A DNA stretch of 64,000 bases from Arthrinium phaeospermum (taxonomy: Eukaryota > Ascomycota > Sordariomycetes > Amphisphaeriales > Apiosporaceae): NCBI GenBank assembly GCA_006503535.1, contig QYRS01000004.1, positions 2,790,001 to 2,854,000 on the forward strand, in the 5' to 3' direction. How positions within the stretch are numbered: the stretch's first letter is position 1; the number at the start of each line of letters is the position of its first letter. This document shows, piece after piece, positions 14,693-52,332 of the stretch. A program made the translations under genes and the position numbers. Below the pieces are notes generated by a model, which ran no database searches, was not told where the DNA came from, and saw only the letters and a list, made by a program, of their open reading frames with translations.

Positions 14693-17600
14693 ATGGCGCC
14701 AAAGCGCAAGCAGTATAGAGGACCATCAGAGCCGGCCGACGACGCTTACGAACAGGGACACCCTGCTCGTCGCGCACGCCACTCGTCTCGGACACCTTCG
14801 CAAGCGCCGTCGGGAACCACGGGATCAACAAAGGCGAGGCCCGATGAGGTCTCACCAAAGATCAGGATCCCAGCGATCCTGCACTATCTGCAGGACAATG
14901 ACATCGACCACACTGCGAACTGGAGCTCTCAACTGGAAGAGATCATTGCCTATCTGGAGTACGCAGACGAGCTGAGGCGGAATGGCCACAAGGATTTCGA
15001 CGCACAGCTGAAAGGCGATCTCTTTGACTGCCAGGTGGTGATTGGGGTCCATAGAGCCTACGAGAAGCGGAACCGGGGCAAGACACCGTATTCAGAAACT
15101 AAGTTGCCCGATGCACCACACCAAAGCCGTCTTGCCTGGTATGACCGACTTCTGCCCGGGGACAAGAAGACGGGATCGCGTTCGCGCATCTCCTTGATCC
15201 CAAGGGAAGGAGCTCGAAACACTTCGCCTTTCCACCTGGCCAGTAAAAACAGTACCCCGCAGCTCCATGATCTATATTTCCGAACCACACGGGGACAGAA
15301 GCTTGTTGAAACCTTGACTAAGCTACACCGCGACGAGGGTCTGCTGTGGCAACATGATTCTGCCTCCGAGCCCTTCCAAAAACTAGCTGGGCCAAATCTC
15401 GCCGAAATCGAGAACGCTGTATATGAAGAGTGTGTGACTTCACAAGAGGCTCTCGTCAAAAAACACGGCTTTTACCATGACAGTTCCGAAGACGACAGAT
15501 ATATTCCTGCTTACAGGGCTGTCAAGCAGCGAGGATGGAGGCGCGCCGCTCTCCAGCAGCTATTGCACCTGTTCAACAACCAGGAGAACCGCGCAGTCAA
15601 CACACCTTGGAGGCGCGTGGCGCTACCTGCCCCTGTCAAGGAGAGAAAAGAGCTTCCGTTCCACACAGCGGCAAGGCTCAGAAACAGAGCCGAAGTAGAC
15701 GATGGCGTCAGAGGCGCGGTGACCCGTGGGATCGGCCACTCAAGCGAGGAGCCGTCGCCCTGGGTGTACTGGTTCTCCGAGTACCGCGAACAATCCAACG
15801 TTCTGTCGTCCTACACCCGTCGCAACTACATGTTGGCATCCTGGAATAAGCGCTCGGCGGTCGCCATCCCGCCCAATTTCCAGGGCCCCTATACCTTCAG
15901 CGGCAGGTGTGTGTACGATGACAATTGGCTGAAGGTCGGCAGGGACTGCGTGCTGCTCAGGAAGAACCTGAAGCGCACCGCAGGCATGCACCAACCGGGC
16001 TGTCGTTTCTTGCCAACCCTCATCGAGGACATCGAGCGAGGGCTGAGTGGAAGCGCCCCTGCCACCTCCCTACGGCCCCGGTCTCAAGTTGATTTCGATC
16101 CCGCCAAAGAAAACACCTTCCTCCTCCTGGACGAGTTCGACATGGCTTGGCTGAAGTTCCTGATGGAGCCCGGCTCTGCTCCAGGTCTTATCAGATATTC
16201 CAACCAGAGGCCAGAGGACAACCTCCTGATCTTGTTCGACCACCGAATCCAGACGCTGTTCAACGACACACACCAAAACATGTTCTGGGCCAAGACAGAA
16301 AGTACCGATGACCACAAGGGCTTCCCCAGCTACACAAGCCAGAAGGTTCCCCTGACCGAGTTGCTGGCCATCATCAACCGCGGAGGCCGAAAGCTCGGAA
16401 AGGAGAAGGGCCACGTTGCCTGGACGGCATCGGATCTGAACGACCACGACACCAACCCGCCGAATACGCTCTACCAGTTCACCCTCGAGGAAGCCAGGTT
16501 TGCCTGCATCAAACTAGCGAGGTTGGGTCGACTTTTGTAAGCTTGAGAGCCCCTACCATCCTTCGAATATTTGATCTTCTTGCTGACTTTTGAGTAGCTA
16601 CGAGGGACCTATCCTCGAAGACGTAGACGAGTACGTAAACTCGACTGAGTGGGATCAAGACACACAATGCCGCTTCTACCAAACGAACGACGTGAACGAC
16701 TGGGGCCATGTCGGCATGCACAAGACGGAGATCTTCCCGGAGCAGCGAATTATATGGCGCCACGAAAACGAAACCGCCTTTTCTAAGTTCAACCGGTCTT
16801 ATAAGCAGCATACCTCCAGCATTTTCACAGCTGACCCAGAGGACGGTCGACCGGATGGTTTTGCGGCTGAAACCCTCTTCAAAGTCGGAACATACCCCGA
16901 GGGCGGATTCGAAGAGGCACGCAAGTCGCCCATCTGGGAAGACATCGTGCCCATTGACGTGGCCGCCGCTCAGGAGCTGGGGCTTTCTGAGCGGACGTCC
17001 CAGTTCTTCCGCAACCTGGCTTTCCGCCTGGGCCGGACGATTCGACACTACCATCAACTTCAACAGCGCTCCGCCAAGAGTCCCGGTCTGTCTCGAAAGG
17101 AGCTAAAGTCGGCATCTGAGAAGTGGCGCGAAATGGTCGGAGAAGTCAAGAAGACAGCCAAGTTAGCCGGCTACACGCCCGCCCGGTTCACCACAGTGAC
17201 AGACGTCATCCCCAGAGCATCTCCTTCACACCCCGCAAGCGAGTCCAGGGACTTGACAACCCTCTTTGCCGCATTCCGGAAGGGCCTGATTAACGATTCC
17301 GTCCAGAACTACACCCAGACGTACCCCAGCCGCCCTACCTTCTCCACAGATGAGAAGGGCCATGTAGTCAAGACCTTCCACAGACAGAACGTATGGGGCT
17401 GGTCGGAAAAGGTGATTCGGGAACACCACGCCCCCTATATCCGGGAGAGGTACTTCGACGTGAGGCGCTGGCCCCTGCACCGCCAGAGCGAGGCCACCCA
17501 GAAGATCATCCGGACGCGCAAGGACGAAAACTTATGCACCCAGTCGCCGCTGGCTTGGTACCGCTACGGAATCCGGGTCGGACCGGCCGCCAAGAAGGGC

Positions 17601-20256
17601 ACTTTGAGCTACGAAAACAGCATCATCGATGTGCTGCCGTCTAAGCAGCAGCAGGCCGCCGTCGAGCTCGTGAAGAAGTTCAAGCAGGCGCTGGTGGTCA
17701 GCATGCGAAATGCGAACGTCAGCCTTTCGGACGAGTGGGAGCTCATCATCAACCCGCCCCTGAAGGATCCATGGAGACTCCTCGACGCCACGCGGGCACT
17801 GGAGCCGATTGTCCGGCCTACGTCCAAGTTCATTCCGGGTCCTGCAAGCTTCCCCATGGGCGACACGCTTCTTAAGCAGATCCAGATCAGCCAAGAACTT
17901 GAGTCAAGTAAGTATTTCTTTTCTTTCCAATTCTTAATACAGTAGTGCATCGAACTGTATTGGATAGAGCTAACGTCGGTTGTTACAGTCTTGGATCCCC
18001 AGCCGCAAAATCTGGGCGCCAAACTCCTGAACCAGTTCACGAGCTGGTTTGCACCTGAGCCGGACCGCATCCCTCTATTGCCCGAGATCGACGAAAACCG
18101 CGCCCCTCGCAGCAACCCCAGGAAGCGCCGCCTCCCGCCCGCTTTCCTGTCCGAGCTCGAACCGGCCCAGAAGGTCGCCGCTCTCCCCAACCCCTTGAAC
18201 GACAGAACCCCAGTACGACCGCCCCACCATACCAACGTGCGCGGCCCTCGAGTTATCGAGAGCGGCCGACGACCGATACCTACCAGAGCCGGTCTGTCTA
18301 CCTCCAATCTGGCGCATGCTCCTGATTCTGCCGAAGAGAAGGAACACAACCGCCGCGAGAAGGTCGAGGCTGCTGCTGTACTCCTGCGGGGCAAGGTCAT
18401 CGACCAGGAGGAAGTGGTCGCGGAAGCTGCGGTAGAAGCCCCAGCGCCGCCGGAGTGGAAGGTGAAATCGAAACCACACAATATACGCAAAGCCGACGAG
18501 GTACCGATCGTCGAGATTGTAAGAAATGACGACGGCGCCGCGGCTACAGCTGGGGAAAGTAAGGAAGCCGCAACGAAGAAGGCGGCCTTTGACCTGGTTG
18601 GGGGCAAGAAGGCCGAAGAGGGCTATGTCTGGCCTGCCTCGGTCCGACGTCCGCGCTACAGCATCGTCCAAGACGATGGCAGAGAGGTTGTGATGATCGA
18701 CCAAGACGAGCTCGGCGGACTCGAAAGGGCAGTCAAGGCGCCTTCGGCCCAGTGGTCCGCTACCGAAGTCGCGCCTCCCAACATCATCTTGCGGTTCAAC
18801 CCGTCGGAACAGGTCCAGAAGGGAGAAGGGTTCAGGCCCTTAGACAACCCCCTGATTGAGTTGACGGACAAGGAGTCCGAATACCCTGTGCCGGTCAAGA
18901 AGAAGCCCGCAGCGCCCGTCTTCACCTTTGGCACCCAGTCCCCCGCCGGAAGCCCCTTGAACCGTCGCGTCCCAGGAAGCCCCCTGGATCGTCGAGCCTC
19001 TAGCTCCGTATCTGGTAAGCCCCATAAATCTTGCCCTTGTTTCTGCGGTTCTATATACTGACTGATCAGTCCCGGCATCCGTAGCTTCCTCAAGGTCTCG
19101 ACACTCTAATGTCTCTAGATCCGTGTCTGGTAAGCATTCCTAATCCATACTATCCCCCCGATTATATATACTGACGAAAGAATCAGTTGCAGGATCCACG
19201 GCTACCTCGGGATCTCGACGTTCCAATGTCTCTCGCTCCGCGTCTGGTAAGTATTCCTTACCCATACTTTTCCCCCAATTATATATACTAACGAACGAAT
19301 CAGTTGCAGGATCCACGGCTACCTCGGGATCTCAACGTTCTAACGCCTCTGGCTCCGCATCTGGTAAGTGTTCCTAATCCATACTTTTCCCCCAATTGTA
19401 TATACTGACGAACGAATCAGTTGCAGGATCCACGGCTACCTCAGGGCCTCGATCTTCCACCGCCTCTGCTGCCTCTTCCGCCGTTGTCCCCCCTCAGGGC
19501 TCAGGGACTGGATTTGCTCCCGTCACCATCGCCGATATCACTCCTCCGGAAAGTGAAGGAACTTCTCGCTCAGGCTCGCGGGCCCAAACTCGGGGAGAGG
19601 TGTGGCACCTGCCATCCGGGAAGCCTGTCGATATCACAGATGTTCCTGCCACGGACGCCGACGGCAAGCCGCGACACGTCACCATCCGTGCCTGGTGCGC
19701 GCTCCAGAATGAAGCCTTCCCGAACGGCTACCGGGCGGTCCCGACGCCGGGGTCGAACAACCACTGCGGCGTGTACGCCCTGGTCATCAGCATGCGCAGG
19801 CAGTTTCCCACGATGCGGGGCGTCCGCGAGGTGACGTACGAGAAGCTGCTGGCGATGGGCACGGACCCGCGCGTGCAGGAGCGCCTGGCGGACATTGGCG
19901 GCAACTTTGCCACCGGCTTCGACGCCAGCACCAACTTCAGCATCGACATCCTGACCGCCATGCTCGAGGGATGGGGCATCAAGCAGGGCATCCGCCTGCA
20001 CCTGGGCATCGTCTACCCGATGGCGTCCCGGCGGGACCCCTTCGTCATCCTCAACGCGCAGCCCGATAAGGCCGAGGAGGACTGCGTCGTCTGGATCCAC
20101 AGCGCCGACGCGACGGTTCGGGGGAGGCGGGAGGGCATGACGGACGCCGAGATCATCGAGGAGGACGAGGCGCTGGACCGGACGGTGTACAACCACTTCT
20201 CGGGGATCATGCCTAACCCCCCGCCCCGCTCCAGCGAGCGGTTGAAGGGCCGATAG
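14693..20256 (+). CDS. 1,731-aa orphan protein, OTU-like C-terminus
   Basis: Seven exons are inferred: 14693-16536, 16598-17907, 17989-19014, 19070-19129, 19187-19246, 19304-19363 and 19421-20256. All junctions keep frame and total 1,732 codons. The start is ATG 14693 (MAPKRKQ); the open frame extends upstream only through non-ATG codons. Residues 1 to about 1400 have no domain I recognise; the section after about residue 1050 is hydrophilic, acidic and Ala/Pro-rich. The three 60-nt exons encode Ser-rich 20-aa repeats. The C-terminal 170 residues contain GSNNHCGVYAL (Cys about 1569), a VVWIH strand (about 1679) and YNHFSG (about 1711). This order resembles OTU-type cysteine proteases (GDGNCLY ... 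HY), so a deubiquitinase-like fold is plausible but unproven. Other papain-like fold peptidases are possible. Confidence 0.7.
19015..19420 (+). repeat. Tandem exon-intron repeat array
   Basis: Inside the 1,731-aa gene, a 117-bp unit (60-nt exon plus 57-nt intron) is repeated head to tail at 19070-19186, 19187-19303 and 19304-19420. A further exon-like half copy begins the last exon at 19421. A diverged 55-nt intron (19015-19069) precedes the array. Every intron starts GTAAG and ends CTRAC followed by ATCAG. Every exon is phase 1 on both sides, so any number can be included or skipped without a frameshift. Exons 5 and 6 both start VAGSTATSGS. The introns themselves are nearly identical, which points to recent duplication or gene conversion. 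Confidence 0.85.
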
Positions 20257-51067: not shown

Positions 51068-52332
51068 TTACAGAAGGAAGACGCCGAAAAGAGCCGCCGC
51101 CATGACCACACCTCCCGACACCACGCCAGACAACCCCATCGTGCCCGCCAAAGCCGCCGAGCTCTCGTACGAAGCCTGAGCCGAAGCCGCGACCGACTGC
51201 GCACTGGCGACCGCCACCGACGCCTTGGACCGGTCGTCGCCCGTCGCCGTGGCCGCGACCTTCTCGTAGCTGGACGCGACGCTCTCGGCGCTCTTGACCG
51301 CCTCGCTTGCGTGCTTGGTGGCCGAGTCGGCCGCCGTCGCCGCGACGCTCTCGGCGCTGGCCGCGACCGACTCGCCGTGGCTCACGGCCGACTGCCCCGC
51401 GGTGGCGGCCACGCTCTCGGCGCTCTTGACCACCTCGGTGGCGTGCTTGGTCGCCGAGTCCACGATCGACTGCCAGTCCTCGCGCTTGCCGAACCGGGCC
51501 GCGAGGCTCGTGGCCGCGGCCTGGGCCCGGGACGCCGCCGCCAGGGCCGCGGCCTCGGCGTCCTGCCAGCTGTCGCGCTTCTGCTGCTGCGAGTTCTTCG
51601 CGGCGACTTGGTTGGCGTTGGCGACCGCTGCGCTTGCTTGGGCGAGCGCGGAAGCGACATCGTCCTTCCATCTGTGGATTTGTTTCATCAGTCTCGCAAT
51701 ATTCACGACGGGGAATGAACCATCGTCGGGGCGGGTAGTACACCGAAGACGCCATGGTTGGCGTCTCAGGGGGTTGGGGCGATTCAAGTGGATGTTTGCA
51801 CACTTACCCGTCGCCAGCTGCGGCGGCTGATGCCTGTGCAAGAGCGGATGATACATCCTGCTGCCAGTCGCGCTTCCCGAATTGCTCAGCGATCTTGGAA
51901 GCCTCGGCCTGTGCGGCGGAGGCGGCAGCCAGTGCAGCGGCTTTGTCGTCCTGCCACTTCAAGACATATAAATTAGTAAATTGATGCCATTGGTTTTGAT
52001 ATAGCAGCTAGTATTGGGAGTGCTAAATCTGGCAGATGGGAAAAAAGAATTTGGTATGAATTGATTTGAGACTTCAATTTTAATTGGACCTAGGGACAAG
52101 ACGGAAAAGGGGGTAAGGAGTGAAGACAACGTACGTCTCGCTTGCCGTTCTGGGCGGCAATAGAGCTGGCCATGGCAGCAGCAGAGGAAGCAACAGCGAG
52201 AGCAGAGTCCCTCGCGCTTTGCCAGTCCTGGCGGTCCACGAGAACCGGTGCTGGAGTGATTCTGGGAGCCGGCTGGGCCGCGTTTGCTACGGCCAGGCCA
52301 GCTACCATCACGGAGGATGCCACGAAGTGCAT
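51068..52332 (-). CDS. Kex2-type repeat precursor protein, Ala-rich
   Basis: Exons 52332-52135, 51956-51808 and 51671-51068 give 316 aa. Introns are unusually long for this window (178 and 136 nt). A signal peptide opens the protein (MHFVASSVMVAGLAVANA). Then come repeats that begin DWQ or DSWQ, continue as an Ala/Ser-rich helix and end in Lys-Arg: KR at about 64-65, 94-95, 147-148 and 178-179, three of them preceded by Gly. The exon 1/2 junction restores GKRDWQ, which supports the model. Residues 180-290 hold longer Ala/Ser/Val amphipathic repeats (SATKHA(T/S)EVVKSAESVA). The last 20 residues are hydrophobic and fit a GPI-anchor signal. Lys-Arg sites are Kex2 targets in the Golgi, so secreted peptides of about 30-50 residues are predicted. 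Confidence 0.82.

What the first reader, a model, noticed from the sequence alone, without database searches (positions are those of the whole stretch)
19015..19420. Tandem array of in-frame 60-nt exons and near-identical 57-nt introns
Three consecutive 117-bp units, each a symmetric phase-1 exon plus a complete spliceosomal intron, are repeated head to tail, with a diverged intron before and a half unit after. Both exons and introns are conserved, so the exon-intron unit itself is duplicating. Each exon adds 20 Ser-rich residues without changing frame, whereas a retained intron brings an early stop (for example TAA in the first copy). This is a ready-made device for length variation by copy number or exon skipping, in a linker just before a putative protease domain.
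Basis: partly seen in the sequence, partly recalled or inferred. Interest (0 to 1): 0.8.

Follow-up and report, generated by a model that had tools for sequence, protein, structure and literature searches.

The report
Tandemly repeated exon-plus-intron in fungal gene
A fungal gene carries three head-to-tail copies of a short piece that holds both a bit of protein code and a whole intron, a rarely described way for a gene to gain introns and lengthen a protein linker, and one already reported in another fungus.

The parts
14693..20256 (+). Host gene, open model of seven exons and six short introns, 1731 aa plus stop
   Evidence: sequence-only model; transcript ends unknown; six annotated Apiospora proteins align along it
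16537..16597 (+). intron A, 61 nt
   Evidence: the annotated relatives' proteins continue across it
17908..17988 (+). intron B, 81 nt
   Evidence: the annotated relatives' proteins continue across it
17989..19014 (+). exon 3; its last 24 nt resemble the ends of e4-e6 (17, 15 and 18 of 24)
19015..19069 (+). intron i1, 55 nt, probably the ancestral intron; GTAAGC...CTGAC...CAG; retention gives TGA at its branch site
   Evidence: same position and spacing inferred in P0004 and P0005
19070..19129 (+). exon e4 (first array exon), 60 nt, phase 1-1
19130..19186 (+). intron i2, 57 nt; second in-frame acceptor ends at 19192
19187..19246 (+). exon e5, 60 nt, phase 1-1
19247..19303 (+). intron i3, 57 nt; no stop if retained (exitron-like); second acceptor ends at 19309
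19304..19363 (+). exon e6, 60 nt, phase 1-1
19364..19420 (+). intron i4, 57 nt; second acceptor ends at 19426
19421..19442 (+). half unit at the start of exon 7
19096..19442 (+). 117-bp tandem array as delimited by TRF, 3.0 copies
19603..20256 (+). C-terminal OTU-like domain (modelled with fair confidence for about residues 60-228 of the 277-residue exon-7 segment; low confidence after that)
   Evidence: no Pfam match for this segment

Best explanation
This is an intron-bearing coding minisatellite. An ancestral single short intron (i1) and part of its flanking Ser-rich exon were duplicated head to tail (inferred: replication slippage or unequal crossing-over), and the 117-bp product was then amplified. 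Each duplication delivered a complete, phase-matched intron with its own donor, branch site and acceptor plus 20 codons. The gene thereby gained three introns and about 60 linker residues without losing its frame (sequence shown; splicing inferred). The most likely function is modest and near neutral: a longer, flexible, Ser-rich tether between the large N-terminal part and the C-terminal OTU-like domain. Copy number should be mutable, and the introns should be spliced constitutively by intron definition.
For: Array and unit anatomy. With the six introns removed the model is open over 1731 codons. The intron that relatives share at this place resembles i1: the genomic frames P0004 and P0005 run past the donor and end at the codon that in the window is the TGA of the CTGAC branch site, at the same spacing, with 7 and 9 of 14 residues of the translated intron alike. 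The 60 extra residues are absent from 6 of 6 annotated Apiospora proteins found: A. marii joins RASSSVS directly to GSTTSSGPRSSTASAAS. The A. kogelbergensis model seems to read straight through one intron-like stretch with no array. One place only in the own assembly. The linker is the longest of seven, 203 aa against 120-180, and A. rasikravindrae has an unrelated repeat of its own there. The kind is documented: Cryptococcus CNN00420, about 107-nt repeats with a full intron, EST-supported, copy number differing among strains (PMC2395259, section 10).
Against: No transcript data. Conservation of splice signals among i2-i4 is not above the rest of the intron (1 of 10 variable sites falls in 13 essential positions, P = 0.27). 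The 6 e5/e6 differences fall 1, 2, 3 on codon positions 1, 2, 3, too few to show coding constraint. The i1-i2 divergence looks older than the split from A. marii (judgement, not computed), so absence in A. marii may be loss or a gene-model omission rather than a recent gain here. i1 homology to i2-i4 is weak. The frame is also open with i3 retained, so openness does not prove removal of i3.
Confidence: 0.78

Rival explanations
1. The array is mostly intronic in practice: one intron of 406 or 412 nt from the i1 donor to the i4 acceptor is removed, and e4-e6 are cryptic or skipped.
For: Skipping e4-e6 and using the distal i4 acceptor gives RRASSSVSGSTATSGPRSSTASAAS, the same junction as annotated in A. 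marii (GRASSSVSGSTTSSGPRSSTASAAS) and, in pattern, in A. saccharicola. Frame is kept.
Against: The two introns of the gene outside this region are 61 and 81 nt. e4-e6 have canonical sites and are open in the right frame in all three copies.
Confidence: 0.12
2. A working device for protein-length variation: regulated skipping of e4-e6, alternative acceptors 6 nt apart and in-frame retention of i3 produce linker isoforms that tune the OTU-like domain; retention of i1, i2 or i4 removes the domain.
For: 7 of 7 skip combinations, 4 of 4 acceptor choices tried and i3 retention keep the frame; retention of i1, i2 or i4 truncates.
Against: Such frame neutrality follows automatically from duplicating a phase-symmetric unit. 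No RNA structure beyond shuffles (z -0.12). Exon skipping is uncommon in filamentous ascomycetes (recalled, not tested). The six annotated relatives do without the units.
Confidence: 0.08
3. Introner-like element family: i2-i4 are copies of a mobile intron.
For: Near-identical introns in a fungus; introner-like elements are known in fungi (PMC4457414, listing and start of abstract only; PMC8469720 passages).
Against: The exon is duplicated together with the intron at a like divergence (e5/e6 54 of 60, i3/i4 52 of 57). The 3' intron motif occurs without mismatch only at these three places in the assembly (two further sites have 3 mismatches; reversed control 1), and the 425-bp array matched only here (the tool scores best candidates only).
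Confidence: 0.01
4. Assembly or gene-model artefact.
For: Only one assembly was seen.
Against: Units differ at 13-18 of 117 positions, so they are not one unit repeated; the gene is open over 1731 codons.
Confidence: 0.01

Closest known systems
Cryptococcus neoformans CNN00420 intron-containing repeat (Sharpton et al. 2008, PMC2395259; abstract, passages and section 10 read)
   Same: Repeat of about 107 nt made of exon ends and a full-length intron, near-identical introns, single-copy gene, gain by repeat expansion.
   Different: There ESTs support splicing and strains differ in copy number; here neither could be tested. This is an ascomycete, the unit is 117 nt, and the linker leads to an OTU-like domain.
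[quoted passage not shown] fission yeasts, PMC3629103, passages read)
   Same: Tandem duplication is the source of new introns.
   Different: There a new intron is made by duplicating only part of the signals, with a donor from formerly exonic sequence (potato) or proto-splice sites AGGC in 24-nt repeats (fission yeasts); here each copy carries a whole intron.
Fungal introner-like elements and Hypoxylaceae sister (stw)introns (PMC4457414, listing and start of abstract only; PMC8469720 passages)
   Same: Near-identical spliceosomal introns in one fungal genome.
   Different: Those spread to many unrelated exonic sites and have symmetric structure; this is one locus and the exon moves with the intron.
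Intragenic coding tandem repeats such as yeast FLO genes (named in a passage of PMC2395259; otherwise recalled)
   Same: In-frame tandem units that change protein length.
   Different: Those units hold no intron (recalled).

Membership tests
Intron-containing coding repeat expansion (CNN00420 kind) | Repeat unit holds a full-length intron plus ends of the flanking exons | tested here: met
Intron-containing coding repeat expansion (CNN00420 kind) | Introns of the copies near-identical, single-copy gene | tested here: met
   49-52 of 57 identical; one place in the own genome for the array and for the exon-7 protein (best candidates only)
Intron-containing coding repeat expansion (CNN00420 kind) | Each unit keeps the reading frame when spliced | tested here: met
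Intron-containing coding repeat expansion (CNN00420 kind) | Splicing at each copy supported by transcripts | not testable with these tools
   no RNA data held
Intron-containing coding repeat expansion (CNN00420 kind) | Copy number differs among strains or orthologues at the DNA level | tested here: inconclusive
Introner-like elements | Copies at many unrelated loci | tested here: not met
Introner-like elements | Intron multiplies without flanking exon | tested here: not met
   exon and intron duplicated together
Tandem-duplication intron gain from proto-splice sites | New intron runs from a site in one copy to a site in the next | tested here: not met
   each 117-bp copy has its own donor, branch site and acceptor
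OTU protease domain (C-terminal part of the gene product) | OTU fold | tested here: inconclusive
OTU protease domain (C-terminal part of the gene product) | Catalytic Cys and His | tested here: inconclusive
   Cys115 of the exon-7 segment is invariant in 10 of 10 rows; His226 is His in 8 of 10 and Leu in P0003 and P0009, which share the same tail; no residue could be matched to the OTU histidine

The most novel reading that the evidence does not exclude
The array is a living, strain-variable exon-intron minisatellite in which the ladder of phase-symmetric units, dual in-frame acceptors and an in-frame retainable intron yields a graded set of linker lengths in front of an OTU-like enzyme, so that intron number and protein length evolve together within one species.
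Probability: 0.12. Interest if true: 0.6.

Novelty: new member of a known kind. Interest (0 to 1): 0.38.

Why it matters
Recently gained introns with a visible source are rare. The Cryptococcus authors wrote that future comparisons should verify whether gain by repeat expansion is ubiquitous (PMC2395259, passage). A second clear fungal case, in another phylum (Cryptococcus as a basidiomycete is recalled; Apiospora is an ascomycete), with the likely ancestral intron still in place and relatives in the same genus whose annotated proteins lack the units, makes that testable. It also shows how a phase-symmetric unit lets a gene gain several introns at once at no cost to frame.

Tried and rejected
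Introner-like family: rejected. RNA-structured device: the array folds like shuffles, and no Rfam family reaches its gathering score in the window. Splice signals specially conserved among i2-i4: not significant (P = 0.27). Coding constraint from codon positions: too few differences. Domain by sequence: Pfam none for the exon-7 segment; scanning the 10 members of alignment A3, one weakly hits Imm71 at E 0.078; PDB by profile: best E 0.44 and 0.7, unrelated molecules. First structure model with 4 sequences: mean pLDDT 46, not used. BFVD viral models: no match at E 0.001; the first row is an OTU-domain protein at E 0.29. Relatives' DNA in genome contigs and viral contigs: none confirmed; metagenome contigs not scanned because its cap is 0. 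Background survey: in 264 kb (20 stretches of 10 kb from two contigs, plus the window), 8 tandem rows of period 30 or more, of which only this array contains an intron-like pattern; that pattern is loose and also matched the reverse strand of this array, and the sample is about 0.5% of the assembly. Literature: ten searches, most of them with capped listings; apart from CNN00420 I saw no fungal exon-intron tandem array of this kind in the rows listed. That says nothing beyond those ten searches of open-licence papers. Papers: PMC2395259 abstract, passages and section 10; PMC8469720, PMC3629103 and PMC12202052 passages (the last only to look for an assembly like this one; not used); PMC4974935 abstract and outline; PMC10999098 passages and section 10; any other paper named was seen in a listing only.

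Full report
What is there. The window is fungal. Its own assembly is 48.4 Mb in 19 contigs, and the gene's nearest annotated relative is from Apiospora marii (Apiospora: Xylariomycetidae, Amphisphaeriales), with 429 of 436 residues identical over exon 2. The finding lies inside one gene that I modelled from sequence alone: ATG at 14693, stop ending at 20256, six introns of 55-81 nt, one open frame of 1731 residues. The 117-bp array spans 19096-19442 in 3.0 copies without indels. Twenty random windows of the same first-order composition never scored above 70, against 547 here. Units differ at 13-18 of 117 positions.

Anatomy. Each unit is a 60-nt exon and a 57-nt intron with phase-1 borders. 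Donors are GTAAG in all four introns of the region; branch sites are CTGAC or CTAAC; the first acceptor is CAG. In i2-i4 a second CAG lies 6 nt downstream, in frame, so the far one could be used at the price of two residues. The last 24 nt of exon 3 match the ends of e4, e5 and e6 at 17, 15 and 18 positions. For e4 the match of 17 lies exactly at the exon end, and the best elsewhere in exon 3 is 13. So the duplicated segment probably once reached back into exon 3. i1 itself resembles i2-i4 only weakly outside the splice signals: 100, 415 and 306 of 2000 interior shuffles score as well.

Effects on the product. Removing any subset of e4-e6 keeps the frame, 7 of 7 combinations. Retaining i1, i2 or i4 truncates the protein; retaining i3 adds 19 residues without a stop.

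Relatives. Three protein searches were made: one search gave P0001-P0003, one search gave P0004-P0005, and one search gave six annotated proteins, P0006-P0011, all from Apiospora. In some searches only the roughly 8000 best candidates were scored. P0004 and P0005 are unspliced genomic frames of exon 3. They run past the donor into the intron and end at the codon that in the window is the TGA inside the CTGAC branch site of i1, at the same spacing, with 7 and 9 of 14 residues of the translated intron alike. Their stop codons themselves were not seen. So the intron at this place is probably old and i1 its direct descendant. P0003 (a genomic frame from an unnamed contig) and P0009 (spliced, A. 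arundinis) have an identical 258-residue tail but differ just upstream of it, which points to one intron there in that species too. An A. arundinis genome paper says its annotation used RNA-seq reads (PMC10999098, section 10); that P0009 belongs to that assembly is my inference. The A. kogelbergensis model (P0011) seems to read through a single intron-like stretch between the two exon ends, without an array. A. marii and A. saccharicola join exon 3 directly to exon 7. Of the six annotated relatives none has the 60 extra residues or the array peptide SVAGSTATSG. The linker from PP(N/S)II to the LPSG-type motif is 203 residues here and 140, 138, 128, 120, 180 and 130 in P0006-P0011 (P0011 includes the read-through stretch). 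The A. rasikravindrae linker is lengthened by a different repeat, so this linker tolerates repeats.

An ambiguity that I could not remove. The annotated A. marii junction is also what this gene would give if e4-e6 were all skipped and the distal acceptor used. Without A. marii DNA I cannot tell a single-intron allele from a gene model that skips an array. The weak i1-i2 similarity, against the likeness of i1 between species, suggests that the first duplication is not very recent. Then A. marii either lost units, or hides them, or the copies diverged fast.

Uniqueness and background. The 425-bp array sequence matched only here in the own assembly. The intron 3' motif occurs without mismatch only at the three places in the array; two other sites match with 3 mismatches, and the reversed-pattern control gives 1. 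The tool scores only best candidates. In a 264-kb sample none of the 7 other tandem rows of period 30 or more has an intron-like unit.

How it works. The best-supported account is duplication of a segment with a whole intron by slippage or unequal crossing-over, followed by amplification, each step adding a phase-symmetric exon and a ready intron. Shown: the unit, the frame, the intact splice signals, the single place in this assembly. Inferred: the ancestral status of i1, the mutational mechanism, actual splicing, the mild effect on linker length. The same kind of event is in print for Cryptococcus CNN00420, where ESTs support splicing and strains differ in copy number (PMC2395259, section 10). 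Hence 'new member of a known kind'.

Noticed in passing
19603-20256: Protein identity to A. marii falls from 97.5% (310 of 318, exon 3) to 87.3% (193 of 221) past the array: the OTU-like part differs much more than the rest in this pair.
   Followed up: no
18951-19004: What looks like a 27-nt tandem duplication in exon 3 (SPLNRRVPGSPLDRR; the two 27-nt halves agree at 18 of 27), shared with A. marii and absent from P0004, P0005 and A. saccharicola.
   Followed up: partly
51275-51461: A second, more diverged tandem array, 66-bp period, 2.8 copies, 67% matches, GC-rich.
   Followed up: no
P0010, last 40 or so residues: The annotated A. rasikravindrae protein seems to leave the frame in the OTU-like domain (by eye), a likely model error or a broken gene.
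   Followed up: no
P0011, linker: The A. kogelbergensis gene model appears to retain the i1-equivalent intron as coding sequence (GKNES...SYILTGV, by eye).
   Followed up: partly
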